From the NCBI GenBank assembly GCA_023053545.1, contig JAKZAN010000112.1:27448-91447 (forward strand): a stretch of DNA of 64,000 nucleotides, given 5' to 3'. The stretch comes from Lepidurus packardi. Lineage: Eukaryota; Arthropoda; Branchiopoda; Notostraca; Triopsidae. Shown piece after piece: positions 1 to 63,703 of this stretch; within the stretch, counting starts at the first letter, position 1, and every line of letters starts with the position of its first letter. The notes under the pieces are model-generated. The model was not told where the DNA came from. It was given only the letters and a program-made list of their open reading frames with translations, and searched no databases. Made by a program: the position numbers and the translations under genes.

Positions 1-1782
1 ACTATTCTGGAGTTCGAGCCTGTATATCTTTTTGAGCTGCTTTATAGAAGCCAGCAGATCCTTCTTGAACCTTTCCACATTTTTCTATGGGGCGTAATCC
101 AGCTTCCAGATGTTGGCATTGTCGTTAATAGCGTCTACAGTTTCCTGCCGAGGAGTGTCTTTCGCGATGCTGGTGAACTGATTCGAGAACAGGGTCGACG
201 ACTCTGACTTAGACTAGCCTGCCTGCATGGCCCATTTAATAGCAGAAATGCTTTTATTTCTGTGCTTGACTTTTTCGAGGAGGTTCTCAATGCGTCCCTC
301 AGTGTGCTGCTTTAGCTTAGGGTAAAAGACGGGGTGCTTTTTGATGTATTTGACGATGCGTTCGAAATGCCAGTCCACCAGTACGAATCTCTCATCTTCC
401 TGGAGCTTCTCATTGGTTTTGTTTTTGGGGCAAAAAAGAATGAGCTTAGAAGAGGAGGCGTGCTTCTACAAGTAGCCAGCCACCTCGTCTTTCTCCTTGT
501 AGCTGCAGATCACGTAAGGGGAGTTGTTTATATCCTTCTAACTGTACTACTAGGCTGATCCGTAAGTGAAAATATGGACCTTCAGCTTGTCCAGCTACTC
601 CTTCACTGGTTGGAATTTTGAAGAGTTGTGGTTTTTGTCAATCACGTCAATGCTTCTGGCCTCCTGCTTCGAGACCCTATACCCGTACAACATATCTTTA
701 ATTTCTTTTCTGAGGCTGACGACCGAAATCGCTGAAGGATCTGCCTTGATGGGAATGACCTTTGCGCGATTCTGGTAGTTGATTTCGAGGAACTTCTTCT
801 CCAGAGAAGAAACATTAGTCTCCTCACAGATGATGGTGACTGCGAAGAAGTAAGGTGCAAAGGTGACTATGGCGTCAAGAGAGTCAAATTTCCTGAATTC
901 GAGTTTCTTGGATTCTAGCAACTTCTTAATCTGATCAACAAGAGGCTAAAGTCCACACGAGTAGAGGAAGACCTTGGAACACGGCACGAGAGGGAGTCTA
1001 AGGTCCGGGACTGAGATGCTGATCTAGTTTGCTATTTCTAGAAAGTTATCCGAAATGAAGTATAGCTCCTCTCCATAGACTTCTTAATGAAGGGAACAAT
1101 GGCAGATGACTCGTGTCAGGGAAGGATTAACTAGTCTCAGGACTTACTCCTGGAATACGTACTCCGTCACAACAAAATACGCAGCTTCCACAGCCAGGGT
1201 TTCAGCAAGTTTGTTAATGCTGTTGCAGCTACTAAAGTTAATGTTGTGGGACTGTAGAAGACTCTAGAGTGCAGCGTAATTACTGGCTTCATTCTCACGG
1301 CGCAACAATACCACATGCTTTGTTGGCTGCCCATTTTCAGCGTCCCCCGAACCTGACGGTGGGTTTTTAATACGTGGCTTCTGCTTCAGAGCAATCTCCA
1401 GCATTTCTTCGAAGTCTCTGCTGACATATACGTAGGGGTATTATGGTTGAACTAGCTGTTATTCTTGTTCTTCTTAGAGTATGAGATGTAGGTTGGGGAG
1501 AAGACCAAGGGCGAGCAACTGGGCAGAGAGGGAGTCAACAAGGCTAGCAGCCACTAAAATCTCGTTTACGAACTAGTGTTCGAAATCTTTGAGAAGGAGT
1601 TATATGGTACGATACTCCTCAAAGTAAATATCCTGTTTTTGTAGGATTTCCTTATATTAGATCTTGTCGTACTTGGAGATGGAGGGGTCTAGGATGAGGA
1701 GGGCATGTATGCGTGGAGCTGCAGGATCTTTTTTGCCTGAAGAAAGAGGAATGCTTGCAGCCCATGACGATGGAGGATTGTT
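1..1782 (-). CDS. Unrecognised protein, open at left edge (partial)
   Basis: With TAA/TAG read as sense, the minus strand is open for 594 codons from 1782 to base 1 and continues beyond the window, so the C-terminus is missing. About a dozen TAA/TAG codons lie in frame and no TGA. The upstream end looks like a splice acceptor: a TACTAAC branch-like motif is followed by a CAG at 1785-1783, so a short 5' exon probably lies between 1784 and 2092, but I could not find its ATG. The protein looks globular, with alternating hydrophobic strands and several segments such as FVLVDWHFERIV that weakly resemble the end of a BRCT domain. That resemblance is not enough to name it. Confidence 0.6.
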
Positions 1783-2092
1783 CTGAGTAATGGAATAGTT
1801 AGTAAGAATAGAATAAAAGACTAGATATTAGGTAGAAATATATCGAAATAATGAGGGAAATATAGAATGTGTGAACTACATTCCATAAAGAGGGGCGACG
1901 AGGATGCCGGTCAATTCTGCTAGGGAAGGTTGTGATGTCTCATCTGTGCTTCTAGTCCTTTCAACTGCACACTCAGCTATCACCTGCAATCTCACCACCT
2001 TACCCGACTAACTTCATACAAAATATCTCCAAAGTTTAGTTTATCAGAATCCATATTAAAAATAATATTGATTTAATACTCCTCAATTCCAA
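1783..2092. other. Divergent intergenic region / probable 5' exon of left-edge gene
   Basis: This AT-rich stretch lies between the minus-strand left-edge gene and the plus-strand RRM gene. It should hold both promoters and the missing first exon of the left-edge gene. I see no recognisable RNA gene or repeat in it. Confidence 0.4.
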
Positions 2093-2527
2093 ATGAGCCA
2101 TTCTGTCATTGTCAACGTGTCCAACATCTCCAACGACGCTTCCGATTAGGAAATCAGAGAGTACCTCAGACTCGTTGGTCCCATGGACTCCTGTGATATT
2201 AACCGCAACGAGCCTCCCAAAGTTAGTGCCCGTGTTGTCTACTATGATATCGAGACAGCCCTCATGGCAGTACGCAACCTCGGTTCATCTGACTTTCGTA
2301 GCAGGAGACTGCAGGTTCGCATTGTGGACGGCATGGACAACTCGCAAGCTGATGTGACAGTCGACGAACAAATCCGAGACTAAATCCTGCGATTGGACCC
2401 AGAGGAGAGAATCCGGTTCTTCAATCTGATGGGAAAGTATGCTAGGACGGAAGGGTCGGAATTCGTGGAGTTCCTGAACAGGCACTCCAAAATCCTAGAC
2501 GCAGTCAACGTAAGTCTTCGCAGATGA
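2093..2527 (+). CDS. Small RRM-domain RNA-binding protein
   Basis: The 144-aa protein starts at the first ATG and ends at TGA 2525-2527. Residues 3-80 form a single RRM: RNP2-like VIVNVSNI near the start and RNP1-like ARVVYYDIE near residue 47. An in-frame TAG at 2147-2149 falls at an RRM helix-1 position usually acidic (DASD[E]EIREYL). A second half rich in charged residues (EERIRFFNLMGKYA) may be a short helical region. A GTAAGT at 2510 followed by TACTAAC near 2579 resembles an intron start, but splicing there would run the protein into the convergent ASF1 gene, so I keep the unspliced end. The exact role in RNA processing cannot be told from the sequence. Confidence 0.7.
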
Positions 2528-2662
2528 GATGAAATGATATGGCCCCGAGGCTGTCTAATGATGTGATTAAACTATACTAACACCCGAAAGTTATTCAAAT
2601 AAACTCTGGTATTTCCCACCAAAATACATCAATAACTTGCCATATCGACACTCCTTCATAGA

Positions 2663-3345
2663 TCATTGGAAAGAATTCAGTTGGGGCGCGTCTCCCGTCC
2701 CGAACATGCCGTAGCAGTAGCTGCCCTGCCCTGCTTCGTCTAACTTTTGGAAAGCTCCATTCGACTTGGCGAAGGGATCCTCCATCTGCATTGAGCCGGC
2801 CAACGGCACGATGTTCTCGAGGTTGCTGTTCATGGAATTATCGGTATCCCACTGGATCTGTAGTCTTGTGATCCGGGGCTTGTCGCTGAGGATAAACCTT
2901 TGGATTTTGTCCAGCATGACATGTTCAGGGGGATTGGCCAGTAGTTCTTAGTCGACATAGGAGTTGCGAATATAGTAGCCCACACGGAAGAATTATTTGC
3001 TTCGATAGCTCACAGAGATGACGATGGCGGTGACATCTGCAGGTGGAAGGAAATTGTGAGCGAATATTTGGTACCGAAGAGCTCGTCCTTGGGGATGATA
3101 GAATAGTCGGGGGGGTTGCTTTCGGTGGTGAACTGCATGACTCCGGGCTGGAGGGGGCCCATGTCGAAGGTATCTATGACCTGGTCGCGGGTTTCGTCTT
3201 TGGCGGATCCGATGTAGATGAGTTTCCACTCGATGGCGTCGGGTATTTCCTTGAGACACTCGAAGGTGATGTGGAACTTGAAGAGGGAGAGGGAGGGGGC
3301 GGGGTTATTGTCGACGATGACGTTGGTGATGTTGATGACTGACAT
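2663..3345 (-). CDS. ASF1: Histone H3-H4 chaperone ASF1
   Basis: ASF1 hands H3-H4 dimers to CAF-1 and HIR in nucleosome assembly during replication. Exon 1 is 3345-3075 and exon 2 is 3036-2663, with a 38-nt GT..AG intron (3037-3074), giving 214 aa. The N-terminus (MSVINITNVIVDNNPAPSL), the EWKLIYIGSA strand and FFRVGYYIRNSY in exon 2 are the conserved immunoglobulin-like core. The C-terminal 60 residues are non-conserved, as in other ASF1s. In-frame TAA codons at 2995-2993 and 2950-2948 replace two glutamates of the family (qEFiRVGYY and EELrENPP), good evidence for UAR=Glu. The conserved Met at 3345 was preferred over an upstream in-frame start. It is divergent from MCM5, and both are S-phase genes. 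Confidence 0.96.
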
Positions 3346-3914
3346 GATTTTGAAATTTATATTTGGTGCACTATTTTGTGTTTTTTGATGTCGTCTGCTA
3401 ATCCGCACTAGCTCTTAAAATTAACACAGCATGCAGACTCCCAACCTAAATTTCAGAGAATCGCTCCTTTTTTGGAAATACCATTATATTGGGATATCCC
3501 TGTATATTTATATTTGTATTTGTTGCCTCCATAATTTCCCTACGTCCTGTTTTCCTTCCCTTTCTCTCTCTGCATCATGGATATTTGGAGGGGCATCAGA
3601 CTTCTGCACTAGCTTCTCAAAACTTCCACAAACCGTATTCCACACCATTCTTTTCAACCCAGGATTACCCTCTTCCCTTCCTGCCCCCCCCCCACTCCCC
3701 TATGCCTCGCTCCCGCCAGTCCATTGCTTGTATATAATTTGGTGGATTATCTAATTGCTAACATGTGGATTTGACAGAGCAGTCAGTGCCTCTGCCCTGA
3801 GTTATTTATGCGCCAAATAATGCTTAGGCGCTTCTCTACACATAAAAACCCTCCCTCCCTCTAATTCTTATTACACTTAACTTCACTCGATTTCTAATCA
3901 CACTCGCACTTCAA
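3346..3914. promoter_or_regulatory. Shared ASF1/MCM5 divergent promoter region
   Basis: This 569-bp spacer separates two divergently transcribed replication-linked genes. It has pyrimidine tracts near 3670-3700 and an E2F-like octamer at 3810-3817. TTTGAA-type hexamers lie right beside both start codons. No convincing ORF or RNA gene is present. Confidence 0.5.
3810..3817. promoter_or_regulatory. E2F/DP-like site GCGCCAAA
   Basis: GCGCCAAA is the reverse complement of TTTGGCGC, the canonical E2F/DP binding octamer known upstream of MCM and other S-phase genes in animals and plants. It sits 98 bp before the MCM5 ATG, inside the ASF1/MCM5 divergent spacer. The match is exact; function here is inferred. 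Confidence 0.4.
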
Positions 3915-6051
3915 ATGTTCGACAGCAGCACCTACCATTACACTGACCAGAACCTCGTAGCTTCTGAAAGCAACCGCAACGACTTCACCCTCGGCTCCAT
4001 CAAGCAGGCCTTCAAAACACTCATTCACGACTTTGACAGGGAGGCCGTCCGAATCTACCAAAACCAGTTCAACACCAATGCCCAGCGCCTACGCCATTTC
4101 CTGAGTGTCAACCTTGAGGATATCAAGGCTCATGATGAGCAGATGTATGAAATGCTCATAGACAACCCTCTGCAATCGCTTATGTCGATGGAGGAAGCCC
4201 TTACTGAGTACGCAGCCGAAAGGCACCCGAACTCTGATGGAGAAACAGCCAAATGGCAAGTCATGCTGAAGAGTGATAATGTCCCTCGCGCCCTGAGAGA
4301 CATGTCTAGTCATTTGGTTGGCAAGCTGCTGGTTGTTAACGGGATAATCGTGACTGCCACCAAGCCATTCATTAAGGCCACGGTGCTAAAGATCCAGTGC
4401 AAACATTGTGACAACATCGAAAGCATTCCTATGGTTCCAGGGCAGTCACCTATCATCAAGAGAAAGTGTACAGCCAACCCAGCCGCGAAATGTGAAATGG
4501 ATCCTTTCGTAGTGTTGGGAAACAGCGAAGTCGTCGACTGTCAGAGCCTCAAAATCCAGGAAAACCCTGAAGAAATACCTACCGGTGAGATCCCTCGAAG
4601 CGTGATGATCATTGCGGATCGTTTCAACGTCGACAAGTGCATCGCCGGAGATAGGGTGAGGGTCACAGGAATAATGATGGTGGACGACCGCAAAAGTAAA
4701 GGTAACAATGTGCTCAACGTAGGGTACATCTATGTCACCGGCATCGAGAAGGTCAAGGAACGTACTTCGGCAACCTATACACCTCAGGACGAGGAAACCT
4801 TTAAGAAAATGGCTAAAAATAGTCGAGTCTACGAACAAATCTACAAAAGCATTGCTCCTGGTATCTACGGTTCTGAAGACATCAAGAAAGCAATCGCATG
4901 CATGCTCTTCGGCGGCTCACGCAAGAGACTACCCGATAATACAACCCTCAGGGGCGACATTAACATTCTACTCCTCGGAGACCCCTCCACTGCCAAGTCA
5001 CAGTTCTTGAAGTTTGTTGAGCAGACTGCCGCCATCGCTGTCTACACCAGTGGAAAAGGCTCATCAGCTGCTGGTCTCACTGCCAGTATTACAAAAGACC
5101 CGACCACTGGAGAGTTCCAAATTGAAGGGGGTGCTCTCGTGCTCGCTGACGGAGGTATCGTGTGCATTGACGAGTTCGATAAGATGAAACCAGGAGATCG
5201 TGTGGCGATCCACGAAGCCATGGAACAGCAAACAATCAGCGTGGCCAAGGCAGGCATCACAACCAGACTCAACTCTCGAACCTCAGTTTTGGCTGCGGCC
5301 AACCCCATCTTCGGTCGATATGACGATCTCAAACAGATAGCAGACCAGATCGAACTTAAGTCGACAATCCTGTCGCGTTTCGACTGTATCTTCGTGGTGA
5401 GGGATATGAACACTAACGAGAACAATGAAAGAATCGCTACCCATATTCTGGACCTCCACTTAGGCAAGACTTCCAATAAGCAGAATGAAACTGAGTTCCC
5501 CTTCGAGACCCTGAAGAAATTCATCAGTTACGCCAGAAACAAAATCAGTCCTCAGCTTTCTGGCCATGCTTCAGAAAAACTGCAAAACATGTATGTCGAG
5601 GACAGAGAGAAGTCTCGTGCCAACAAATCCATCCCTGTGACCGTCCGACAGTTGGAGGCAGTTATCCGTCTCAGTGAAGTAACATTATGTTTTAATCAAT
5701 CCTGTTTCTGGACTGTAGGCACTAGCAAAAATGAAGCTGAAAACTTAAGTCAGTGCAGCTGATGTCGATGAAGCTCACAGACTTTTCGAAGTCTCTACCC
5801 TAAAGACAATTGATGGTAATCAGTTCGGCCTTGAGATGCCAGGCCACCTGGTGGAGGATGTGAAGAAAATCGAGGAAGCTATCAAGAAGCGAGTGTGTGT
5901 GAACACTGTTGTTTCGTTGTCAGGACTGATAGAAGGATTGATCGATAGTCAATTCTCTGGCTCTCTGGTTTCACATGCTATCAATTCGCTGGTGAAGAGG
6001 GACTAGTTCAAGAGGTGCAGAGGCGACAAGTACATCAGGAGGGAGAAGTGA
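3915..6051 (+). CDS. MCM5: DNA replication licensing factor MCM5
   Basis: MCM5 is a subunit of the MCM2-7 replicative helicase. Exons are 3915-5678 and 5719-6051 with a 40-nt intron, giving 698 aa, a little under the usual 730. Visible features in order are a zinc-binding region (CKHC near residue 158, further cysteines near 182-193), Walker A GDPSTAKS near 355, Walker B CIDEFDK near 417, and the arginine-finger SRFD near 487. The stretch around CMLFGGSRKRLPD matches MCM5 better than other MCMs. Exon 2 carries the C-terminal winged-helix region and includes one TAA and one TAG sense codon before the TGA. The first 1.8 kb has no TAA/TAG in frame, unlike most neighbours. Confidence 0.97.
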
Positions 6052-6218
6052 TGAGGTTTTGTTTGATTATTTTTCGACTATTAAGTATCTGTATTCGGCT
6101 GAATAGTTTTTATGTTTATCTAGATGCTTTTCGCGGCTGAGAACCAAGACAGGGCTGCACAGGAACGCAAAACACACATTTAAACCATATGGCTATCTAC
6201 GATATCTATTATTCACGA

Positions 6219-20073: not shown

Positions 20074-21825
20074 TCATGCGAGTCGGTCGAACCCAGAGGT
20101 CCCAGCCACATGCTTCTGCCCGCAGACCCCGAGGTTCACAACTTCCTGCAGCATCTTCCGCACCAGTTTCCCAACTAGCTCAGAACTCTCTTAGAGACAA
20201 GGGTTCGAGTTCACCTCAATTAGCCATACTTTTCCAGCATCGTCTAACAAAAAGTCGTACCCAAATAACTGGAAATTTTTCCTCCGAGGCTCATCTGCTT
20301 CAGAGTGTCTAGTTGAATGGCGACTGGTTGCTTTTGTTTTGGGAGGTGGGGGCATACATCCCTGGCATACTTTCTTTCTGGTCGCCTCATAAGTCACTAG
20401 AACATGCTGCTTCATCTGCTCTATCAAGTTCTGCAGTTTGATTTGAGAGCCCTCCTTCTCCAGGTAGCTCTCCAAATCTGCGAATGACATCTGATTGCCT
20501 GCGACCAACTTGCCGTAGGTGTCAGCATTGTTCTTCTGGATGGCATTGTTCGTCAAGTGAATATAGATGTTCTTGAGGTCTTTCTTGCTGGTCGAATACT
20601 CCTCGCCACTGAGTCTCAGGTATCCTTCTTTGAAGAAATAGAGTCGCTGTTTCTGGTCCAAAAGCACCCACACCCGCACATCGAATTTTCTGTCGTGAAC
20701 CAGGAGAGGGTTTTTGATGTACTTCTGGATGACGTAGTTGCTGGCCGAATTCTCCTGACTCGGAGCTGTATACATTCTGAAGTTCGACAGGGATATATCC
20801 TCTGAAAGGAGTTCTTCGAGTTTGCGGAGTTTGGAGAACAGGTGTATGCCTGTTCCTCTATTCCGGTTGGCTGGCTTCACGATCCAGATCGGCTACTATT
20901 GTTTCTTAGCTTTGGGGTCATTAATGTCTTTCTCGATGGCCTTCTAACCATTGATTTAGACGATAGGGTCTATTTGTTCCATGCGCGATTCGTTTCCATC
21001 TGTTTCGTTTATCGAATGGAGTTACTCCTTACTCTAGTTATGCTATATTGACTATTTCGAAGCTTCAGCAGGACTGCTAAGAAGAGGTTTGAGCCTAATC
21101 CTATATTTCTTGGCCCCGGCTCTTTCAACACAGAACCAGTTCTTGGTTTTGACGATAGTCTTCTTCTTCGGATGCTAACTTAAGTAAAAAGTAAGGAAGG
21201 AGATCAAGTCTCTCTAGACAATCTCAGTCGACCGATTGAAGTTGATCGGGAATGTAGCAGGTACTATATCTCGTACCTTCTCCTGACAATATGCTGATAG
21301 GTTTCGGTACAATGCGTCCTTGTTCGTAAGTTCGCTGTGTTGCTAGTACATGTTCACTATGCTTCTATTCTTGGTTGCTGCTTCGTAGTTCACCATGCGT
21401 GAGTCCTGCACCCAGATGAGTCCGACAGTACTTTGGGAGACGACAGGCTCCATGCAGTTAGCCTCGAGGATACTTGCGACGAGGGAGTGATTATTTCCTT
21501 TGGACAGATGGAATGAGTCAGGCATCAGAGGGTGCTTTTTGGAAGGAGCTTTGCTTTTGGTAGGTTTGCTTTGATTAGAGGTTTTGACTATCTCATGAAG
21601 AATAAAGTGTTTCTTCAAAGGAACAGACTTAGTACTGCTGGCACGGAGCTTGGGATCGATATTCGAGGGCAAAGGCTGGGGCTGGTGTTTGCGAGTGATT
21701 TTGAAATTCAGTGGACGGGGGTTGGTGACAGGGAGGGAGACAGATTGGACCGAAGGGGGGGGTATGAGATGGTAAGTGTGAGAATTAGGAAGATTGGGGA
21801 GGGAGGGCTACTCCGTTATATTCAT
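20074..21825 (-). CDS. Tubulin tyrosine ligase-like protein (TTLL)
   Basis: TTLL enzymes add glutamate or glycine to tubulin and other proteins using an ATP-grasp fold. This single-exon gene encodes 583 aa. The ATP-grasp region runs from WIVKPANRNRGTGI (near residue 313) through VIQKYIKNPLL, KFDVRVWVLL, HLTNNAIQKN, to WLIEVNSNPCLE near 540. The TAA at 20193-20191 stands where the family has the invariant glutamate after NPCL, strong support for UAR=Glu. NPCLE and YFFKEGY are typical of the TTLL3/8/10 glycylase side, but substrate cannot be fixed by eye. The N-terminal 170 residues are low in complexity. There is only a short tail after the catalytic domain. Confidence 0.9.
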
Positions 21826-22234
21826 GTGAAGAAATTGATAGCTTTAACAATCGATTAGTGAAAAAAGGGTCGGTCCTGAGCAAAGCGTATTCAGTTAAGA
21901 GAATATGGGTGCTCATTATATCAGTGGGGCTTGGATAACGTTATGCCGTACTTTTAAGGCAAGAATGTGAATATATTTAGAGGACTTTCCAGCAGGCTGT
22001 TGGCACTAGGCTACCCCTTCAAATATTCCTAAGACTGTCCTCCAGCTTATAATTTTTATTATTTTCTTCTGATTTGTATTTTTCTCCGATCCCCACTTAA
22101 GACTAGCACGGTCATCCAGCCCCGAACATTTGCCTGTCAACCAGACCCAACCCTTTACCCTTTTCACCACGAACCCCCCCATAACCATTATTCCCTATCA
22201 ATCTGAACAATTTAAAAATCCTCGATTTTACGCC
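21826..22234. promoter_or_regulatory. Divergent intergenic region (TTLL / kinase)
   Basis: This 409-bp AT-rich spacer separates the TTLL gene from the next kinase gene. It presumably contains both promoters. No RNA gene or repeat was seen. Confidence 0.4.
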
Positions 22235-23296
22235 ATGAATACTCTCAACACAGAAATCGTTGCTCAAAACCTGCAACTTCTCTCCCAAGGAGCCAACTCC
22301 CAAATCTACCTCTACCCTCAAGAACTGGTCCTTAAGGTGGTTGACTCCTCGTTCAGCAAAGAGTGCGGGCACCTGTGCAACGAGGCCCGGCTGCTGGCCG
22401 CTCTGGACCACCCTAACATTGTGAAGACTCTGGGGCTGAGACGCAACTAGGTAATTAATGGTCGATACAACCACGTCCTTATTCTTCGTTACGCTAAGCA
22501 TAGAAGTCTTCTTGACTGGGTCAAATCGAATAAAACCAACAAACAAAACATTCCCATCCCCATTATCAGAACTATCTTCACCAAACTTGCAGATGCTGTC
22601 GCCTATCTCCACCGCCTCGGACTCGTTCACCGCGACCTCAAACTCGACAACGTTCTCATGTATGCCTCAGACACGTCCCAGCAGGACTCCCTTATTCCCA
22701 AGCTCAGTGACTTTGGCTTTGCTGAAGACTGTTAGTTTGACCATCACCAAGATTAAGAAGAAACCGCCGAATCCTCCACTGCCTTCAGTTCCAACAGTGT
22801 CAGTGCATAAGCTTTAAGTGCAGAGGTACCAAGTGAGGAGAAAACCCACACTTCCTGGACAGGAAAGGGAAGATTGTTCAACACCTACAAAGGAACACGC
22901 AGAGGATATATGGCGCCCGAAATCCACGAGGTTCTATCGACCCAGAAGTACTACGACGCCAAGAAATCAGATGTGTTCGCGCTGGGAGTGATGCTGTTCG
23001 CCTTTGTTTTGGGTAAGCTGCCGTTCGAGTACGCCACGAAGGATAACGATATCTATAAACACATTTGGGAAGGAAACTTTTAGAAGTTCTGGGCCAGGCA
23101 TCAGAAGACCATCGATGCCCAGATCAATAGTTGTGGCTCTACAGAACATTTTATGCAAGAAGACCTGAAGAGTCTCCTCCAGTCCATGTTGGCAAAGGAG
23201 TCTGCTCAGAGGCCGGACATGGAGTCTGTGCTGAACCACCCCTGGCTCAAGGGCAAAACTGTCTCTCAAATCACCCTCCCCGGATGCCCTTATTGA
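22235..23296 (+). CDS. Serine/threonine protein kinase with expanded activation segment
   Basis: Single-exon protein of 353 aa. Motifs: QGANSQIYLY (a degenerate glycine loop), LVLKVVD lysine, VHRDLKLDNVL catalytic loop, LSDFGFAED and YMAPEI. Between DFG and APE there are about 65 residues instead of the usual 20-30, rich in Glu/Ser and containing several TAA/TAG codons; this could be an unspliced low-complexity insert. The C-lobe ending PFEYATKDNDIYKHIWEGNF[E]KFW is a form common in ciliate kinase expansions. The ATG at 22235 gives the best start, as the conserved part begins just after it. Confidence 0.88.
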
Positions 23297-23623
23297 AAGG
23301 TGTGCTATCTCTGAAGGAATGATTCTGAGTTAGACAAGTAGTGGAAAGCATGATCTGTCTTTAAAAGCTGGAAACAGAGGCCTGAAGGCTGACGCCAAGG
23401 TTGTTAGACGAGCGAATCCGATGTATTTATGAGCTTGGCGTGAAGAAATGCTGAAGATGAGCCTGAGCAGTAATGGAAAACACTCCCTTTTCGATGATTT
23501 TGGAGTTTGTGAGCAATACAGAAATATTCTATTGTTATTTTTAGCATTCCAAAATTTCCAATGTTCTGCGATGCTCTGCTAACTATAAATAATCAATCAT
23601 CTCTCCCGCTTCAGTCTATTCCC
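23297..23623. other. Convergent intergenic region, no gene seen
   Basis: This 327-bp spacer lies between the stops of the kinase gene and the large low-complexity gene. It is AT-rich at its right end and holds no ORF or RNA that I can support. Confidence 0.4.
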
Positions 23624-44917: not shown

Positions 44918-45346
44918 GGGTGTAGAATTAGAAAATTGGTATTATACTAATCTGTTATCTTAGTGCAGATAATTGGATAATAAGGTATTGGGATGTTCTA
45001 GTCCTAACCGGGAGTTACGGCTTTAACACATAGAGGATAATGAGTACAGATCTGATAGCATGTGAAATCGTTCCTTTACTCGAAGAGTCTCCGATTAGGT
45101 GGGTTGATGATTAGCCCACTATAGTCCAGAATATAGGGTCAATTCACCCAACTATTTTTTCAAACTTGGCTCAATATGCCTTACCTTTTATACGCCCAAC
45201 ATCTTCGCACCTACATTGTTTCCATCGCCTATTAAAAATTATTGATTTCGACCTCTGTCTTACTTCGTCAGGCATCGAGTGTTGTGTTTTTATTTATATG
45301 CGATATAATAGCACATCATTCAAACTCTAAAAGTATCAAGATACCC
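44918..45346. promoter_or_regulatory. Divergent intergenic region before DOP1
   Basis: This 429-bp AT-rich spacer lies between the coiled-coil gene and DOP1, which are transcribed away from each other. I see no ORF with family similarity, RNA gene or repeat. Confidence 0.4.
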
Positions 45347-48300
45347 ATGATGGACAAAGGCAAGAAGTTCGCAGTGGCGACTGACAATCTCAACAGACAA
45401 CTTCAAAAGCTACTCCACGACTTTACCAACTCCACCGAGTGGACGGATCTTAACAGCTGGCTCCTCAAAGTTGAGACTGTCATTCGATAAAACCCCTCCC
45501 CCTTCATCTCTGAAAAGGTTGTACTCTCCAAAAGACTCAACCAGTGTCTCAACCCCATTCTGCCTCTCAAAGTCCATGAATTAGTCATCCGCATCCACGA
45601 CCTCATCTTCTACAACATCCGTTCATCCGTCGAAGGCAACATCAACGATTACGTCCGCCTTTTCGCATAGGACCTGGGGGTCTACAGTGTCTCTCTATTC
45701 CCATTCTTTTCGCAGTCTGCCAACATGCCATTACGACTCATGTGCCTGGACATCTTCAATAGTTACTATATGGACCTCGGACGCGAAATCATCCCTCTGC
45801 TGCCTGGCATGCTGATCGCTATATTACCTGTGCTGGAAGAAACACTCGATGAGAATTTCAAGGGACAGATCGAGGCGACTTTGGGCAACCTCTTTAAGTC
45901 AGCTGGACGTAGGTACTTCATTGGATCCCTGTGGATGTGCGTCTTGCGATTTTCACGCTGCCGAGCTCCAGGCATGAAGTATTTAAACAAGATACTACCG
46001 TAAATGAAGTTCCAGGCAGATGAAGATTAGTTGGAGAGTTCTTAAGGGTTTGCCGAGGAGATGTACCAACTTATGGTCGAATAAAAAACCAAGGCGGGAT
46101 TGCCTGTGCCCAAAAAGGCACAATCCTTGGATCGCAAATTGAAAAAGCATCCCTCAGAACCACCATCCGCTAGTTACTCCCTTGATAAAAAGAGATCGTC
46201 AGGCGGCGAGAATAGCGTCATGAATCATAAATACTTGACTGTCTTGACTCCTGGCCGCGATGAAGAACTAACACCCGAATCCTCAGATGAAGAGGGCAGT
46301 CTCCTCGTGAAAAGATAAAAAACCCTGAGCAAAGAGCAACCAGACTCTGGCCTGCTTTTTAAACAGCCACCTTCACATTTTGCGCCACCTTCCATGGCAA
46401 ACGATGTTCGCACGATGGGTCAACAAACCCCAAGGTCTGACTTCAAGGAGGCTATCAGCACACCCCAAGTTAGCATCACTAGTGCCGAGGTTTCTCATCA
46501 GAAAATGCCATTATAAGCTCAGTCAGAGATAAAGGCTAAAAAATCGAGCCAGAATGTGATTCCTGCGACCCATTCTTCAGAAATGAAAATAGCCAGTGTC
46601 TAGCCTAACTTACAGCACACTCCGATAAAAAGGATTCTAGAGTCTAATTTGAATGCTTAGTCTCACCCATCAGGAGGAGTATCTGAGCCTGATAGTGCTG
46701 ATTTAAAAGGCCGATCTAAATAGGAAGATGCTGAGGATGACAATATCGATGTTGATGGCCTATTCGACAACAACATCCTAGAAGTTGTGTCGCCTACCGA
46801 TGGCGCCCCTGCTCCTGGGTCGACAAAGCAAGCTTCATTTAAAAAACCCACTCATGAATAGAACAAATAAGCTTAGCATCAACAAAATGGTTCGCCCAAT
46901 ACTATTACTAACAAGAACGCTACCAATATCAGCTAAATCAAAAGCCCATTGCCTTCTGATGTGAGAATGCAAACTAACCCCCAAGGAGTCCTTTCCAAGC
47001 CTCCTCCTCATCCTGGCATGACCTTTCCTCCAGGAATGACACTACCTGCAGGCATGACATTACCTCCGGGTATGACACTGCCTCCTGGCATGACGTTTCC
47101 TCCGGGAATGACGATGCCTCCAGGAATGTCTATGCCTCCATTCGCAATGACTGGCAACCCACCTCCAGACATGAAATTACCCCCTAATTTCAATGTTCCG
47201 AAGGGTTCCTTCATGACACCCCCTCCCAACATGAATTTTAGTCCAGGCCAGCCATCTAATTTATTGCCTCCTGCCCCAAGTTTCTAAAAGAAGGCTGATG
47301 GAACGTCAGTGAATACACAGTTCGTCCCTCAACCGCCGCAACGTCCTTCTTTTAGGATTGGATCTGACGGGAAAATGCCTCCCCCTCCAGCAGGATTTAT
47401 TTTCCCTCCTGGAGCCAAACTCCCAATGCCTCCTGTAGGTAATGCTCCTCCTCCCGGTTTCATGATGGGAGCTCCCGGAACGTCGGCTAACCCAAACATG
47501 TTCCCCGGTTCCATACCGCCCCCTATTTTTAAATCTCAACTTCAACCCGTAACTCCTAATAACCTTATCGGCCCTCCTTCTATCGTTGTTAGCCCCCCAA
47601 CAGACCAACACATCACTATGAATAAACCTCCTCCTCCTCCTCCTCCTGTAAGGATAAATAATTTAATGCCGAAACCCGGAACTGGCTCCGATGCTCGGAC
47701 TGGTGACACCAACACACAAGGTCCAACAACCAGTCAGCAAACAGTCTAAATGATAGAAATTAAAAGTCCGAGGACCAAAAAGCTACCTCCCCTCGACAAA
47801 GTGCCGTATCTTTACACTCCAGAACTCGAGCTGATAAAGCCAGGCATGGACGATCAGAACGAAGAGAATGACTACCCTAATCGTAGCAGTTTGGTGGTCA
47901 ACGCTATCATTGCTTGTCTGCAAGACCCCAACACTCTTGTCAAGAGGGCAGTCCTAGATTTCCTCTATTCCCACTTGCGCCTGAAGAATAGGATGCTAAC
48001 CGAAAAAGACAAGCAGCTCCTCGTAGAAGCAGCAATATATCTATTCGTGAAGAAATAACTCACCATCACAAAGCGGGTCAACGGATGGCTCTTTGGCAAG
48101 CCTGACGAAGAAAATAAGTATCAACTCACCGAGAAGAACCAGTTTGTCGTGAACCTCCTGATCTAAGGTTTGAAGTCTGTTCTGAGCCGAGAGCCTACGA
48201 ACCAAGCTGAATGCACTCTTCCTCTCAAACTCCTCCAGAACTTCTACATGGAACATGACCACCTGGTTAAGTTTACCCTTCGACCCATCGTTGTCAGCAT

Positions 48301-51300
48301 TCTTAGATACGTATTCAACTTCAGCCAGGGTAAAGACTATTCTCTGGATGTCTTAAAAGCTGGCCAAAGATTTTTCGAGAATGTCCCGAGTCACTACAAC
48401 TTGGTTTTCTAAGCCCTTGGAGATGAGCTTCTGGAGGCGATCAAAAATAATGATGACCTGCTGTGTTACGAAGTTGCGAAGTACATGGACTTCGCTTACA
48501 TCAGGCTCATGAAGCACGAGTCAGGGTATGATGAGCTAGAATATCTTACTATTCTGCTCCAGAAGGTCGCCAACGCTTTAGCTGTGCTCTCTGAACAGTA
48601 TAACGAAAATTCCAAGTATTCCTTCGTCAAATTACTGGTCCTCTTGATCGTCAATCTCATTGATCGTAAAACCCTCGTGAATACGCAGCTGAAGGCTGAA
48701 CAAGACAAACACAACAGCCTGCTCCTGGAAGAGTCTGGCAACCATCTGCTGCCCAAAGAACGAATCGATTTCTAGGTCCAAATGGAAGACTAGGAGAACA
48801 AAAGGATGCATATTTTCTCAGATATAACCAAGGACATTGAAAAGTTCTTCCTTCGTCTGGGAAAGGTGCTGAGAAATGTCGCATGGCTGCATCCATACGA
48901 GGAGATCTACAAAATGGCTAGTTTAGCGATAACGAGAGTCCAGCGACACTTGCCCCGGGATGAAGTCAAAGTCCTTCCAAAATGGTTCGACACCATTGAG
49001 TCCGGCATCAAGATTATGAACCCTGTGATCTCCCTCGCCGCAATAGAAGCAATGATCTTCTGCCTAACAGCCGAGCATATCCACCCTGCCTATAACTCCT
49101 ATAAGCTACTGATCGTGGCAGAGAAGAATAAAAAGGTAGGCAGCGATTACCAACGCCAGGCGCTGGAGAAGCTTTGGTCTTTGTTGGACTTCCCCCACAT
49201 GCACAAGAAGATCATAGATCTCATCGTCAACTTCAGCAAATACTTCCCCTACGAATTCACGGATGTGGTCTCCAAATCCTTTGCTACTCATAGCGTACCC
49301 GATAAAGAAGCGTCGATCCAGAGATTTTCTCATTTCTGGAGGCTCACAGGCTATAAGTACCGTGACCTTCTCCAGCACAATCATGAACTATCTGAGCTGA
49401 ATAAAGTTGGCTTGTTCGTGATGTTAGACTTCCTCGAAGATGATAACCCCCTGGTCAGACACGCTGCCAAAAGCTGGCTCAACGAGTCTATGTCGTTGTT
49501 CTACCGTGTGCTGGATCCATTGTTCTTGTAGCTGCTGGAGGTGGGCGACAACACCTACGTCACTCCGAAGAACCAGCACATCATCTCCAAGAAATACGAA
49601 ACTAAGAAGGTATTTAGCATATTCCGTAGAATTCGCTCGGTTCTAACTAATGGTTCCAGTCAGTTCTTGAGATACATTTTCCAGACCTCTCTTTCGGATA
49701 CGGTTGATGAGGCTAAGAATCCCTTCACCGATGTCAGATCCCCTGTCATCACAAAACCCAAGCAGGAAAAGAAGGTATAGCCTGTTTAGACTGTGGTTCA
49801 TAAGGAACCAGTCTTGCCAAAAGCTATTAGAATGGAGGAAGAAGGCAAGGAAGATCATGAAATAGTCCTCCAAAGGATGACTTATATGGACCTATTGGTA
49901 GTGGTATCAGTAAAGTACCTGAAGGGACAAGCAATCGAGAGTATGGGAACAGAATTCCACGTGGGGAACTCGGCTGTAAATGCTAGTGCAATCGAGTTCC
50001 TTGAGAGTTTCTTAGGATACATCGACACTCCAGAACTGTGCCAGAGATTTATTGAGTACATCTTGGAAGATCTGTTCTACATCCTGCAACAGGTGGTAGC
50101 AAATCGGGAGTACATCATTCAGGTCCAGCTCCTGAACTTGTTCAAAACCATATTCTTCAACTCTTCACTCAGACTCAAAGGAGAAGTCAGTCAGATTCGG
50201 GGAATGTTCTCTAGGATATTTACATCAAATGTCTTTACGCCCAGTCTTCTCAGAGGTCTCGATACTCCTTTCTCCTATGTCAGAACCCAGTTCATTAGCT
50301 TCATATCATTGTGCATTCCTTTAGTCGCTGATTTCCTGGAGCCTAATCAAGCCACTACCTGCATAAAGAGCATCTTGTTTACGTACTACAATATCATCAA
50401 AGGAGTCAACATGCGTCTTCTTCGTCCCTATGAGGAGGAAGTACTCTCACCATCCATGAAGAATCCCTGCATTCGAAGAGTCCTCGAATTACGCGAACGA
50501 GCCTCCCGAGAAGATAAGGTTGTCAGACTAACTGATAACCTGACTGAAGTTGCAAAGACGAATGAAGTTCTGGCCATCCTGCATGGAGTTTCTGCTATTC
50601 TCAACTATTTCTATGAACTCGATTCGATAGACTACAAGAAAATCTAGTTTACCTTCTCCAACCCCTACACCATTTTCGACTCTATGCGAAGCATCCTCAC
50701 TCTCGGACTCTCTAAGGCGCAGAAAGAAGAAAAACTAGTGTGCAAAACGGTCTTCCTACATAATCTAGAGACATGCGAGTCCATTCTCAAAGATATAGGC
50801 CCTGTGTTTGAGACTATCCTCAGAGCCTGGCCTCTGTCGGAGGAATACATCCGCATCGCTACCTACTAGTTCACTGAGTTCGGAGTGAAGTCCTTCGGCT
50901 TCGACAGATTCAACAAGTACAACACTGTGCTGACTTCTTTGATCGGCTATGTGAATACTGAGAAGGAGTCGATTTGGGGCAAGATCATCTCTATCATGAG
51001 GCCGATGTTCTATAAATTCCCCAAAGAGATTGTGAGCATTTATATAACCCTTTGGGTGCGAGAATGTCCCAACATGGGTCCCAATGGTGTATACGGCGAG
51101 ATCGACACCAGCAAGACTGAATTCCTCATGAAGATCGTCGAGACACTGATTGTGAATGACTTCCCTCTCAACATCCTTGTGTCTGCATTCTTGTAGACGA
51201 GTTTAGTGGAGAACATAAAGACCCACTACGCTTCGAAGATGAAGGATGAACGCAAAGGCAATGTTCTCGAATATGAAATCGCCCAAATAGAGTCCAAACT

Positions 51301-53082
51301 ACTTTACTTCATCCACGTCTACTTCCATTATGTGCATTTGAGCAACTAGTCTATTCTGAAGGACAATCTGCGGAACTTGTGGGGTCTCGTGCTACGAGTG
51401 GTCAAGCCCTTCCTGTTCTCCAAGAACCCCAACACTAATTTCTGGATCCTCTAGTTCCTGACACTGTGCAGTAAAAAATACTCACCCAAAGAGATCCTTT
51501 CGGACGAGGCATTTAAGACTGAACTCCACGCACTTATCAACTAAAAACTTAAATTCGTGGCAGGCATAGCGAGCAAGGCTTTCAATTTCTTTTATGAAGA
51601 GCCTCGTCTGGAAATGCGAGCCAATGACAGTGTCGGTGTTAACCCTTTAGACTCCCAATCCTATCGCATCATTCTTCCGTTCCCACCCGCCATTTTTGAA
51701 CTTTACATGGAGAATCGACACGCAAAGTCTGACCATGCAGTCCATTCAGAAATTGAACGTGAACTTTTTAATCCGATCAGACCAGGAAACAATGAATAGA
51801 TTGAAAGAAAGAACCGCTTCTACGCTTTCAAATCGCTCAAAAAGATTGGACTCGAACTGATCCAGAATACTTACATGCCGGAAAAGAACTACTGGGTGAT
51901 CCGCAGGACCAAAGAGTGGGTCGATATCATCCTACCCGTCATCGAGGATAAGGCGGAACAGAACTTCATATTCGCGGAATCCGCATCAGAAGTGCTGAAC
52001 GACCTTCTAGATAAAGCACGTTCTATGTTCCTAAAAGCTTTGAAACCAGACTTGCTCAAGATCTTTAACAAGGACGACTTCTTTATCTGCAACGTCAATA
52101 CTCTAAAGCATTGGTCAAAGATCATTGACTGGGTTGTTAACTTCGAGAAAAACAATGAGACTTTTGCTGAATACCTTGATAAGGTAGCCTTGTCAAGCAG
52201 CTACTTCTCGAACCAAGACACTGAGACTAAGAAGAGAGTAAAGAGTTTTGAGAGGATTTGTTTCATCCTCTACAGTGGATGCAAGGACCGTTATGCTGGC
52301 AAGATCAAAAGTCTCCTCGAAAAGATCACAGAGATCTTGAAGAAGTCAGAAGTAGCCCACCCTGCCTTGCTGATTCTGATTCTTTTCGTCCTGAGGATCC
52401 TGGTTTTGCGGTTGACTGAAGCAAGTCTGAATCAGCTGTTTATCGACATCTGGCCCATGGTCATGACACTGCTGATCCAGCTATTCTCCAGGAAAATGAT
52501 CAAACTGGATTTGTCGAATGAAATCTCCAAAAACCCCAACCTTCTTCTGGCAGCCTTGAAGCTGATTTAAATGATTTCGATAGCTAACCTGTCCGAATTC
52601 AGCCACCACCAGTGGATTTTCCTCCACGACTACTTTGGAATCAAGCTCTCCATCAGCGACAACAATATGGAGATGGTCGAATACCTCAACTCTCATCCTG
52701 ACTGTAAATAAATCCCATTATCATCCTCTATCCTTATCCTGACTATTATCCTACAGTACGTAACGTCATTTCATTTGACAAGACCACGGCGACGCCACCA
52801 TTCATTTACAAACCCTACTTGACTAACTACTTCACGCCTTTCAACCTTAACTTCATACCAAAACCTTCAACTGAAGAAACTACCTTTATCCGTCGCAAAA
52901 GAAAGCTCGTTCTTACGGAACCCAAAATCGATGACGAATCAGAGTTGAGAGTGCGGGCAGTTGCCCTGTGCCAGTACCTGATCGACATCAACTAGCAGAG
53001 AGTGGAGGTGGACGAGAAGGAAGTGGAGATGCTGATCGTGAACGACTTCATCAGTCTGGACAACTTCATCCACAAAATCTGA
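45347..53082 (+). CDS. DOP1/Dopey family protein (leucine-zipper-like, endosome-Golgi traffic)
   Basis: DOP1 proteins work with MON2 on Golgi and endosome membranes. Exons 45347-52703 and 52757-53082 with one 53-nt intron give 2,560 aa, similar to human DOPEY1. The N-terminal Dopey block is clear: VLSKRLNQCLNPILPLKVHE, DLGVYSVSLFPFF, LGREIIPLLPGM and YFIGSLWMCVLRFS match the family's 'SKRLaQCLNPaLP', 'DLxLYSxGLFPlf', 'LPGL' and 'LWxcil' sites. Between about residues 250 and 800 lies a low-complexity region, including a proline/methionine-rich stretch. The rest is long and helical with a C-terminal DOP1-like region. Dozens of TAA/TAG are used. ATG 45350 is an equally possible start. Confidence 0.85.
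46990..47160 (+). repeat. PPGMT-type coding repeat inside DOP1
   Basis: About nine imperfect 15-bp (five-residue) units encode PPGMT with variations (PAGMT, PPGMS), forming a proline/methionine-rich tract. Further P-rich sequence follows to about 47700 (PPPPAGFIFPPG, PPPPPPPVR). The tract is in frame with DOP1 throughout. Confidence 0.9.
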
Positions 53083-57786: not shown

Positions 57787-58273
57787 TCACTTCTTCTGGG
57801 GCTTGTCGGCGGCAGGAGCGGCAGCCTTCTCGGGCCTCTTCCTCTCGCCACCCTCTCGCTTGGCACCCTCCTTCTGCTCTCTGGGCTTTCTGTCTTCTCT
57901 TTCTTTGTTATTCCTCTTCTGAGGCTTTTCCTCCTCAACAACCACGGGTGCTTGGGCAGCCACCTTGGCATCAGCGATCAGCTTCTTGAGTCTGTTCATG
58001 GTGGTCTTAGCATTCACGGCGACAGTGGTAGAGAATTCATAAGCTCCACCAGCGAAGTTGGTCTTGCAGCCTTTGCACTTCCAGATGCCGACGGCGGATC
58101 TTCTGACAGCAGTCTGAGGGAATTGTTGATGTGATGAGTACCTTTCCGCAAGCGGGACAGACGTACTTGGCGTGCTGCTGGAGCTCGAACTTCTTGATGA
58201 TTTTTCTGAGGGCGCCACCGTATCTGGTACCGTACTTTCCGGTGATTCCTACCTTTTGGGTTCTCTTGGCCAT
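57787..58273 (-). CDS. 60S ribosomal protein eL43 (L37A) with C-terminal extension
   Basis: Exons 58273-58142 and 58113-57787 with a 28-nt intron give 152 aa. Residues 1-90 are eL43: [20 protein letters not shown], the zinc-ribbon cysteines CPACGK and CKGC, and [10 protein letters not shown]. The intron splits the protein just after the first CxxC. Family members are about 92 aa; here there is an extra ~60-residue tail of alternating Lys/Arg/Glu and Ala/Pro ending in KPQKK. No TAA/TAG sense codons are used, as expected for a highly expressed gene with strong codon preference. Confidence 0.95.
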
Positions 58274-58512
58274 TGTTTGTGGTGGATCAGCTAGGGTATA
58301 TTATACAATATTTTAATATTATCCACAGCTCCCACAATGGTTACTCTATTACCTTTCATTCTCACCCCAGCATAACAAGTATTCTCCTCTGCTCTTCCCA
58401 GTTCCCAATAAATCCAGCTTGAGAGTGTCCATAAGACTACTACTTTCGGTGTTCTCTTAACTCCTTTTCACCATAATAATAATCTTCCCAGTCGAAATAC
58501 CCTCGCCCTAAC

Positions 58513-61080: not shown

Positions 61081-61307
61081 TAAAGTTTGGTTTGGTTTAA
61101 GCAGTTGATAAAAAAATCTTTACTCTCTGTAGATTTGTATTTTTTTGAGTTTCGCTATTGCTATGTATCGAGTGTCTATGTGATTGAACTGCGAGAAAGT
61201 GTAGTTTTGCTATGGGCATGGTACAGTGTTAAGTAGGGTCGGTTTTTAAAAAATAGACTAAGGTAGCTACAAAAATAGATTAGTAATCATTTGATAAATC
61301 TCAGTAA

Positions 61308-62928: not shown

Positions 62929-63069
62929 ATGGTCGGGGGGACTTGGAAGGTAAGTTTTTGAGAGGAATATATTCTTAGAAGAAGAACTAGGAATCAGTTG
63001 GCCGACATCGTCTCGCCAATAATAAAAATAATACAGGCATCTGCCAACACTCAGTTCTATCTCATAACT

Positions 63070-63575
63070 ATGTCGGAAAATTCATCAGAACAGGACAATA
63101 CTCCCTCTGGCTCATCCAGCAATTGGCTCCAACAAAAAACTAATGCTCTCGCCTTGCGTCTTTCCAGACCTTTCGAAAAGTACTTCGATCCGCTCTACCG
63201 CGTTGTCAACGCCAGACAAACTCGTCTCCAGGACGAGGAATAGTTCCTGACTAACTATAGACTCGCGTTTCTCGTCCATATGACATCTATGGTTAGCGCC
63301 TTTCCAGCAGGTACACTTTCTATTTGCTGAGTAGGATTTTCGGTGACTACTTCTCAGGATTCTACATGTGGAAATTCAGCAATGAAACCAAAAAACTGTT
63401 CGGGTCCCAGAGACAGTACCTTTTCAGGACCCTGCTCACTTCAACGATAAGTATCAATATGCTGATTGCGAGTGCATGGGTGGACAAGAACAAAATGCGC
63501 CAAGAGGCACGCGACACTCTCAATGAGCGATATAAAAAAGAAGTGACTCTCGAAGCATCGGGATTGTCCAAGTGA
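63070..63575 (+). CDS. Small subtelomeric protein, unknown
   Basis: The 153-aa model starts at ATG 63070 (MSENSSEQDNTPSG) with exons 63070-63266 and 63311-63575. The donor GTTTCT at 63267 is weak, and the alternative acceptor TAG near 63333 also keeps frame, so the middle is uncertain. A hydrophobic stretch (TFYLLSRIFGDYFSGFYMW) and a second (TISINMLIASAWV) suggest two membrane segments, possibly a small organelle or ER protein. It is divergent from the phosphatase gene by 141 bp and is the last gene before the telomere. Confidence 0.55.
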
Positions 63576-63703
63576 CTGAGAATATTGCATTTGTTGTATA
63601 TACTATCCATGATGGCAGAATTTCATCAGATTATCTTAGGCACGAGATATTTGAGGCGGGCTGATGAAGTCATTGATTCTGAGAACTAACACCTTTAAAT
63701 CCT
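63576..63703. other. Subtelomeric spacer
   Basis: Only 128 bp separates the last stop codon from the telomere. It has no repeat or ORF and joins the GGGGTT array directly after AAATCCT. Confidence 0.6.

What the first reader, a model, noticed from the sequence alone, without database searches (positions are those of the whole stretch)
1..63703. UAA and UAG encode glutamate, UGA is the only stop
Nearly every gene contains in-frame TAA/TAG and all reconstructed CDS end in TGA. At conserved positions the reassigned codons match Glu: TTLL NPCL[E] (20193-20191), ASF1 (2995-2993 and 2950-2948), PTPDC1 (62596-62594 and 62508-62506), Myb EED (41886-41888), importin alpha [E]AFW (18834-18832), pirin PQYQ[E] (39719-39721), RRM (2147-2149). 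Only one site (in importin alpha) looked more like Gln. UAR=Glu is known in peritrich ciliates and is rarer than UAR=Gln.
Basis: partly seen in the sequence, partly recalled or inferred. Interest (0 to 1): 0.75.

Follow-up and report, generated by a model that had tools for sequence, protein, structure and literature searches.

The report
Ciliate chromosome reading UAA/UAG as glutamate
This is the end of a ciliate chromosome whose genes read two of the three usual stop signals as the amino acid glutamate, a rare but already described genetic code, found here in an assembly whose biggest pieces seem to come from another organism.

Summary
TGA-only frames reach 2588 codons (50 simulated sequences: at most 616). 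The window is the right end of a 91,447-base chromosome with CCCCAA/TTGGGG telomeres at both ends. In 16 dynein AAA1 hits on 14 small contigs, read through all stops, there are 23 TAG, 32 TAA and no TGA.

A Codetta-like test on 68 UAR sites (window TTLL, pirin, Dopey; 12 dynein domains of other contigs) gives Glu for both codons: UAA n=37, Glu 0.983, Gln 0.013, Lys 0.004; UAG n=31, Glu 0.990. Resampled Gln or Lys codons never reached the observed Glu-Gln or Glu-Lys sums (0 of 5000 for each codon); Glu codons did. Pfam scores favour Glu over Gln by 13.8 bits (UAA) and 10.9 (UAG), and over Lys by 21.6 (UAA). In close dynein homologues, 7 of 11 UAR columns are Glu, none Gln or Lys.

This matches the peritrich nuclear code (NCBI table 30), not the Tetrahymena code nor the UAA=Lys/UAG=Glu code of PL0344. 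Peritrich membership could not be tested. No UUA/CUA tRNA was found in this apparently incomplete ciliate fraction. New example of a known code.

The parts
63703..64000 (+). telomere (TGGGGT)n, right end of the 91,447-base chromosome C101
   Evidence: TRF; sequence; left end CCCCAA; contig placement, contig length
2663..3574 (-). ASF1 histone chaperone, second exon; two TAA at 2995-2993 and 2950-2948, the first at the Glu of yeast ASF1 GREFVRVGYY
   Evidence: Pfam PF04729; PDB alignment; 80.2 bits with UAA=Glu, 77.5 with Gln, 77.2 with Lys
3010..3882 (-). ASF1 first exon; no UAR inside the matched domain
   Evidence: Pfam PF04729
3801..5762 (+). MCM helicase, first exon; no UAR in 559 domain codons
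   Evidence: Pfam PF00493
7488..9017 (-). protein kinase, four UAR in the matched domain
   Evidence: Pfam PF00069
13444..14295 (+). TLC-domain protein, two TAA in the domain
   Evidence: Pfam PF03798
17063..18202 (-). WWE-domain protein, one TAG in the domain
   Evidence: Pfam PF02825
18319..19908 (-). armadillo/importin-alpha-like protein; TAG at 18834-18832 before AFW
   Evidence: frame and codon; family by eye (only weak Pfam matches)
20074..21912 (-). tubulin-tyrosine-ligase-like protein, 15 UAR; TAA 20193-20191 at a Glu-leaning column (Glu 0.25)
   Evidence: Pfam PF03133; 61 homologues; profile
22073..23296 (+). protein kinase, two TAG in the domain
   Evidence: Pfam PF00069
37827..39095 (+). 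snurportin-like m3G-cap-binding protein, six UAR in the domain
   Evidence: Pfam PF21974
39017..40234 (+). pirin, UAR in the domain at 39533, 39719, 39869, 40127; TAG 39719 at a Glu column (Glu 0.43)
   Evidence: Pfam PF02678/PF05726; best 120 homologues; profile; table 30 translation
45056..52822 (+). Dopey/DOP1 homologue, one open frame of 2588 codons with 38 UAR
   Evidence: Pfam PF04118 and PF24598; homologues; codon counts
57787..58467 (-). ribosomal protein L37ae (eL43) exon with a charged C-terminal extension; no UAR in the 109 codons from the domain start to the TGA
   Evidence: Pfam PF01780
58517..60739 (+). cullin-like protein, 13 UAR in the matched domain; Glu beats Gln by 3.9 bits (UAA) and 5.2 bits (UAG)
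   Evidence: Pfam PF00888
61308..62663 (-). dual-specificity phosphatase (PTPDC1-like), three UAR in the domain
   Evidence: Pfam PF00782; PDB

Best explanation
The window is a macronuclear chromosome end of an oligohymenophorean-like ciliate, most likely a peritrich, that uses the peritrich nuclear code (NCBI table 30): UAA and UAG are both read as glutamate, and UGA is the only stop. Shown: the sense use of both codons, their Glu identity by conservation, and UGA as sole terminator. Inferred: one or more glutamate-accepting tRNAs with UUA (and perhaps CUA) anticodons decode UAR, and an eRF1 restricted to UGA terminates. The ciliate chromosomes sit in an assembly whose six contigs of 10.7-14.0 Mb appear to belong to another organism.
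For: Open frames: 2588 TGA-free codons against at most 616 in 50 simulations. Read-through search: 23 TAG, 32 TAA, 0 TGA in 16 dynein AAA1 hits on 14 small contigs. Codon meaning: 68 UAR sites, posterior Glu 0.9999; UAA alone 0.983 (n=37), UAG alone 0.990 (n=31). For both codons, 0 of 5000 resamples of true Gln or Lys codons reached the observed Glu-Gln or Glu-Lys sum, and 0 of 5000 of true Asp codons the Glu-Asp sum; true Glu codons cover all observed sums (lower tail 0.08 to 0.69). The dynein part of the test returned the right residue for 57 of 61 sense codons. Pfam totals over 20 proteins: UAA Glu over Gln +13.8 bits, UAA Glu over Lys +21.6, UAG Glu over Gln +10.9. Close dynein homologues: 7 of 11 columns Glu, 0 Gln, 0 Lys, including the Walker B Glu of an outer-arm dynein. 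Ciliate: CCCCAA/TTGGGG at both ends of C101 and at one or both ends of 6 of 6 other small contigs checked; nearest named proteins are Paramecium and Pseudocohnilembus and Tetrahymena outer-arm dyneins. Table 30 is TAA=E, TAG=E in peritrich nuclei.
Against: No tRNA with anticodon UUA or CUA was found by eight pattern searches. Some UAR sites sit at non-Glu columns: for example Gln-leaning in pirin (40127), Dopey, L133 and L135; Lys-leaning in Dopey (46001), L127, L130 and the cullin. Single Pfam scores go the other way, such as L131 and the TLC protein, which prefer Lys at UAA by 2.2 and 1.4 bits. The TTLL and pirin sites alone (n=10) are weakly decisive against Gln (P 0.011). UAR sites are less Glu-like than GAA/GAG sites (mean Glu-Gln 0.13 against 0.245 nats), within the range of Glu codons. 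No named peritrich sequence was available, so peritrich membership was not tested.
Confidence: 0.95

Rival explanations
1. Tetrahymena/Paramecium code (NCBI table 6): UAA and UAG both encode glutamine.
For: It is the commonest reassigned ciliate code (PMC11687900, passage). A few UAR sites lie at Gln-leaning columns (pirin 40127; L133 site 205; L135 site 106), and Gln is the second-best residue overall.
Against: 0 of 5000 resamples of true Gln codons reach the observed Glu-minus-Gln sum for UAA or UAG. Pfam scores prefer Glu by 13.8 and 10.9 bits. 0 of 11 columns in close dynein homologues are Gln. A TAG stands at the Walker B Glu of one dynein and at the Glu after GKT in two others.
Confidence: 0.02
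2. Split code as in Oligohymenophorea sp. PL0344: UAA encodes lysine, UAG encodes glutamate.
For: It belongs to a ciliate of the same class as the peritrichs, with UGA as only stop (PMC10553269, passages seen). Several UAA sites lie at Lys-leaning columns (Dopey 46001, L130 site 185, L131 site 193).
Against: UAA alone (n=37): Glu 0.983, Lys 0.0037; 0 of 5000 resamples of Lys codons reach the observed value. Pfam prefers Glu over Lys at UAA by 21.6 bits. 4 of 8 UAA columns in close dynein homologues are Glu, 0 Lys. GC is 45% against 30.6% in PL0344.
Confidence: 0.01
3. A UAR=Glu code of a different lineage, such as the trypanosomatid Blastocrithidia (UAR=Glu, UGA=Trp, UAA also stop).
For: UAR=Glu is described there too (PMC12153298, abstract in search listing).
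Against: Telomeres are TTGGGG (trypanosomatids use TTAGGG, recalled). No UGA occurs inside the read-through dynein hits. The nearest named homologues are ciliates. Homology continues in another frame as at introns in ASF1 and MCM (by eye).
Confidence: 0.01
4. UAR is read ambiguously as a Glu/Gln mixture rather than as Glu alone.
For: UAR sites are a little less Glu-like than GAR sites (lower-tail P about 0.11 on 68 sites). The ancestor of the class is inferred to have read UAR as Gln (PMC10553269).
Against: The shift is within the range of Glu codons, and UAR is commoner in less conserved genes (Spearman -0.78 in 12 dyneins), which would give the same shift.
Confidence: 0.04

Closest known systems
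Peritrich nuclear code, NCBI translation table 30 (Campanella umbellaria, Carchesium polypinum; Vorticella/Opisthonecta recalled)
   Same: UAA=Glu, UAG=Glu, UGA the only stop; ciliate nucleus (PMC10553269 and PMC4967479 passages).
   Different: Nothing found to differ in the code. The species and its suppressor tRNAs are unknown here, and peritrich ancestry was not tested.
Oligohymenophorea sp. PL0344 code (PMC10553269, passages)
   Same: Both UAR codons sense, UAG=Glu, UGA the only stop, oligohymenophorean ciliate.
   Different: There UAA=Lys; here UAA=Glu. GC 30.6% there, 45% here.
Ciliate nuclear code, NCBI table 6 (Tetrahymena, Paramecium)
   Same: UAR sense, UGA the only stop; TTGGGG telomeres in Tetrahymena (recalled).
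   Different: UAR=Gln there, Glu here.
Blastocrithidia trypanosomatid code (PMC12153298, abstract in listing)
   Same: UAR=Glu.
   Different: UGA=Trp and UAA doubles as stop there; different phylum, and a different telomere (recalled).

Membership tests
Peritrich nuclear code (NCBI table 30) | UAA encodes glutamate | tested here: met
   37 sites, Glu 0.983; +13.8 bits over Gln, +21.6 over Lys; 4 of 8 columns Glu in close dynein homologues, 0 Gln, 0 Lys
Peritrich nuclear code (NCBI table 30) | UAG encodes glutamate | tested here: met
   31 sites, Glu 0.990; +10.9 bits over Gln; 3 of 3 columns Glu in close dynein homologues
Peritrich nuclear code (NCBI table 30) | UGA is the only stop | tested here: met
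   0 TGA against 23 TAG and 32 TAA in 16 read-through dynein hits on small contigs; TGA-free runs far beyond simulation
Peritrich nuclear code (NCBI table 30) | organism is a peritrich ciliate | not testable with these tools
   Telomeres and nearest named kin support an oligohymenophorean-like ciliate; no named peritrich sequence was at hand; the pirin tree groups it only with two unnamed environmental proteins
Peritrich nuclear code (NCBI table 30) | tRNA-Glu with UUA/CUA anticodon (expected, by analogy) | tested here: inconclusive
   None found by eight pattern searches and ARAGORN on the hits fetched; one ordinary tRNA-Glu(CUC) on ciliate contig C206; every contig whose length was returned exceeds 51 kb, so smaller ciliate chromosomes seem to be missing
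Ciliate nuclear code (NCBI table 6) | UAR encodes glutamine | tested here: not met
   0 of 5000 resamples of Gln codons reach the observed Glu-Gln sum over the pooled sites
PL0344 split code | UAA encodes lysine | tested here: not met
   Lys 0.0037 at UAA; 0 of 5000 resamples of Lys codons; 21.6 bits below Glu
Mesodinium code (UAR=Tyr) | UAR encodes tyrosine | tested here: not met
   Tyr is not among the six best residues for UAA or UAG

The most novel reading that the evidence does not exclude
The ciliate is not a peritrich, and UAR=Glu arose in it independently; that would be a second origin of this code in ciliates.
Probability: 0.1. Interest if true: 0.6.

Novelty: new member of a known kind. 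Interest (0 to 1): 0.3.

Why it matters
It adds macronuclear chromosomes, several of them telomere to telomere, of a UAR=Glu ciliate, a code so far discussed from few species. These contigs lie in a mixed assembly, where the standard code would break nearly every gene and could let them be taken for non-coding or pseudogenic DNA. The uneven use of UAR among genes gives material for asking whether reassigned stops are poor codons.

Tried and rejected
Considered and rejected: UAR=Gln, UAA=Lys/UAG=Glu, UAR=Tyr, a trypanosomatid origin, and in-frame stops as pseudogenes (the same pattern appears in conserved dynein, ASF1, pirin, TTLL and pelota frames).

Led nowhere: ARAGORN and Rfam on the window (0 hits). 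Eight pattern searches for UUA/CUA tRNAs. ARAGORN found no tRNA on the loci, none but a tRNA-Lys on 13 of the 30 loci, and none on four remaining small-contig hits; the other five small-contig hits coincide with Arg and Lys tRNAs. One search listed 100 of 112 places; searches show nine of the rest, so about three were not seen. These patterns miss tRNAs with introns or unusual arms. A DNA search with the ciliate tRNA-Glu(CUC) found only itself. A search for eRF1 domain 2 found one gene on the small contigs, and its best solved-structure match is pelota, so the stop-decoding factor itself was not seen. The tRNA family search scored 63 of 5192 candidates, so it is a lower bound. PDB alignments of the cullin and phosphatase were too distant to weigh alone.

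Rows dropped before counts: 5 Dopey UAR sites with alignment confidence under 6 (27 listed, 22 used); 46 of 50 UAR codons in the 12 dynein domains could be aligned. The 12 dynein loci are 12 of the 16 small-contig hits with C220's two hits fetched as one (C322, C297 and C94 were not fetched). For Pfam dynein scores 10 of these 12 loci were given. Overlapping weaker Pfam families (PF07714, PF01331, PF22785) were not added to the sums. The Dopey profile rests on 3 homologues. By subset: dynein alone and the pooled set exclude Gln codons at 0 of 5000 for each codon; Dopey alone gives P 0.0008 (UAA) and 0.0022 (UAG); TTLL plus pirin alone gives P 0.06 (UAA, n=2) and 0.03 (UAG, n=8). The zero UGA in the window spans is by construction (they lie in TGA-free frames), so one search is used for that point. 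For the PDB tally I counted L130, L128 and L131 (homologues over 500 bits) and not L132 and L133: L132 reads Glu at 2 of 3 UAR (the third Gln or Leu), and the more divergent L133 reads a mixture of Glu, Asn, Asp, Gln, Ser, Lys and Arg.
Full report
What was checked. The window contains 64,000 bases at 45% GC without gaps. It is bases 27,448-91,447 of contig C101 in a 108.6 Mb, 344-contig assembly. C101 is 91,447 bases long and begins with CCCCAA repeats, and the window ends with 298 bases of (TGGGGT)n, so C101 is a whole chromosome with ciliate-type telomeres. Six other small contigs checked at their ends (C112, C206, C219, C266, C325, C328) all carry the same telomere, four of them at both ends.

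Open frames. With the standard code the longest stop-to-stop run is 638 codons; with TGA as the only stop it is 2588. In 50 second-order Markov simulations of the window without its telomere, the longest TGA-free run was 616, and the runs of 400 or more codons added up to at most 1,294 codons, against 18,662 observed. Many of the frames carry homology: ASF1, MCM, two protein kinases, a TLC protein, a WWE protein, a TTLL, a snurportin-like protein, pirin, a Myb protein, Dopey, a cullin-like protein, a dual-specificity phosphatase, a CXC protein and ribosomal protein L37ae (all UAR written as X so that the search was not biased). Of the 40 frames given to Pfam, others had no match.

The cited coordinates. 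The two phosphatase coordinates do not hold: one is out of frame and the other reads GTA. Four of the nine sites were tested against profiles or scores and favour Glu: TTLL 20193 (Glu 0.25, next residue 0.10), pirin 39719 (Glu 0.43, next 0.10), and the two ASF1 sites together (80.2 bits with Glu, 77.5 with Gln, 77.2 with Lys).

What UAA and UAG encode: profile test. I built profile HMMs from 61 homologues of the TTLL, the best 120 of 8000 homologues of pirin and 3 of Dopey. For 12 dynein AAA1 domains of other small contigs I used leave-one-out profiles with all UAR masked. That dynein part gave the right residue for 57 of 61 sense codons. Over 68 UAR sites the posterior is Glu 0.9999, with Gln 0.0001. 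For UAA alone (37 sites) it is Glu 0.983, Gln 0.013, Lys 0.0037; for UAG alone (31 sites) Glu 0.990, Gln 0.009. As calibration, I resampled true Glu, Gln, Lys and Asp codons from the same alignments. For both codons, 0 of 5000 draws of Gln codons or of Lys codons reached the observed Glu-Gln or Glu-Lys sums, and 0 of 5000 draws of Asp codons reached the Glu-Asp sum. Draws of Glu codons cover all observed values (lower tail 0.08 to 0.69 for the two codons separately). The TTLL and pirin sites alone (10) are only weakly decisive (P 0.011 against Gln); the dynein sites carry most of the weight.

What UAA and UAG encode: Pfam scores. I scored the same proteins with one codon changed at a time. Ten dynein domains: UAA as Glu beats Gln by 2.3 bits and Lys by 5.5; UAG as Glu beats Gln by 7.4. 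Ten other proteins (nine from the window and the pelota of contig C219): UAA as Glu beats Gln by 11.5 bits and Lys by 16.1; UAG as Glu beats Gln by 3.5. The totals are 13.8, 21.6 and 10.9 bits. UAG against Lys was not scored this way. Single proteins go either way: at UAA the snurportin-like protein prefers Gln by 1.1 bits, the TLC protein prefers Lys by 1.4 and L131 prefers Lys by 2.2; at UAG the kinases, pelota and Dopey slightly prefer Gln.

What UAA and UAG encode: solved structures. L130 matches the Tetrahymena outer-arm dynein alpha chain at 565 bits. Its UARs fall on Glu (the Walker B CFDEFNR, a TAG), Glu and Glu (GRQELPENLK, both TAA), Glu (PDREIII, TAA), Leu (TAA), Glu (TAG) and Asn (TAA). 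L128 matches the Tetrahymena gamma chain at 664 bits; its TAA falls on Glu. L131 matches human DYNC2H1 at 505 bits; its TAG falls on Glu and its two TAA on Arg and Leu. Altogether 7 of 11 columns are Glu, none Gln, none Lys. A Gln at the Walker B Glu would be expected to abolish hydrolysis (established knowledge of AAA+ ATPases). More distant cases are mixed: L132 has Glu at 2 of 3 sites, and the divergent L133 scatters over Glu, Asn, Asp, Gln, Ser, Lys and Arg.

UGA as stop. In the whole-assembly search with the dynein AAA_6 family, stops are read through and counted. The 16 hits on 14 small contigs hold 23 TAG, 32 TAA and no TGA. The pelota hit holds 3 TAG and no TGA.

Mechanism. By analogy with Tetrahymena and PL0344, where tRNAs with UUA and CUA anticodons do this (PMC10553269, passages seen), UAR is presumably decoded by glutamate-charged tRNAs, and eRF1 is presumably restricted to UGA. 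I could show neither. Eight pattern searches of the assembly for UUA/CUA tRNAs found none (ARAGORN on fetched hits); about three hits were not seen, and tRNAs with introns or unusual arms would be missed. An ordinary tRNA-Glu(CUC) was found on ciliate contig C206. No eRF1 turned up on the small contigs. Every contig whose length was returned exceeds 51 kb, so smaller ciliate chromosomes seem to be missing and these absences say little.

Which organism. The nearest named relatives are Paramecium for the TTLL and pirin and Pseudocohnilembus for Dopey, and Tetrahymena for the two outer-arm dyneins. A quick pirin tree places the window protein with two unnamed environmental proteins (support 95), its wider position being weak. 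UAR=Glu in ciliates is ascribed to Peritrichia, as one origin (PMC10553269, passages). So a peritrich is the likeliest source, but this was not tested with a peritrich sequence. The contigs C1-C6 (10.7-14.0 Mb each) have clustered tRNA genes and tRNA-Glu genes unlike the ciliate one, dynein hits mostly split into short pieces, and no TTGGGG or CCCCAA at the four ends looked at. They look like another organism's chromosomes (an animal, perhaps a nematode, by inference from number and size alone). C43 and C55 carry bacterial-looking tRNAs (my judgement).

Known or new. The code is NCBI table 30. The first report, UAA read as glutamate (Sanchez-Silva 2003), was seen only as a title in a reference list, and UAR=Glu in Campanella and Carchesium in passages of PMC10553269. 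A paper on three peritrichs whose title claims 'less biased stop codon usage' (Chen 2020) was seen by title only and is not held. Its content could bear on UGA as the sole stop in peritrichs. Among the rows listed by searches I saw no paper on a ciliate cobiont like this one; these cover open-licence papers only and show a part of the papers found. The verdict is a new, well-supported example of a known variant code.

Noticed in passing
window 3801-5762, 57787-58467; L124-L135: UAR share among Glu codons varies strongly between genes: 0 in the MCM domain and L37ae, up to 0.4-0.6 in some others. In 12 dynein domains it falls with Pfam score (Spearman -0.78, p 0.003). PL0344 shows reduced use in highly expressed genes (PMC10553269, passage).
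   Followed up: partly
G000 contigs C1-C6 against C42 and above: The assembly is mixed: six contigs of 10.7-14.0 Mb that look like another eukaryote's chromosomes, ciliate minichromosomes with TTGGGG telomeres, and bacterial-looking contigs such as C43 (Thr-Tyr-Thr tRNA cluster) and C55.
   Followed up: partly
window 27560-28955: A 48-base unit repeated 29.5 times (95% matches) inside the long minus-strand open frame 23597-29026 and other frames.
   Followed up: no
window 57787-58467: The L37ae frame continues about 64 residues past the conserved domain as a Lys/Glu-rich tail before its TGA, longer than usual for this protein (recalled).
   Followed up: no
window about 5700-5800: A TAG directly before ALAKMKL downstream of the MCM frame looks like a splice acceptor, so counts of in-frame TAG near exon starts can mislead (by eye).
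   Followed up: no
L133, L134, L135 (contigs C325, C226, C193): Highly divergent dynein-like AAA1 domains, rich in UAR.
   Followed up: no
G000:C4, C36, C40: A repeated element with the motif CTTTAAACAAGTTTAGACCTGTTCAAACC swamped a tRNA pattern search; the right end of C1 and the left end of C4 carry another repeat.
   Followed up: no
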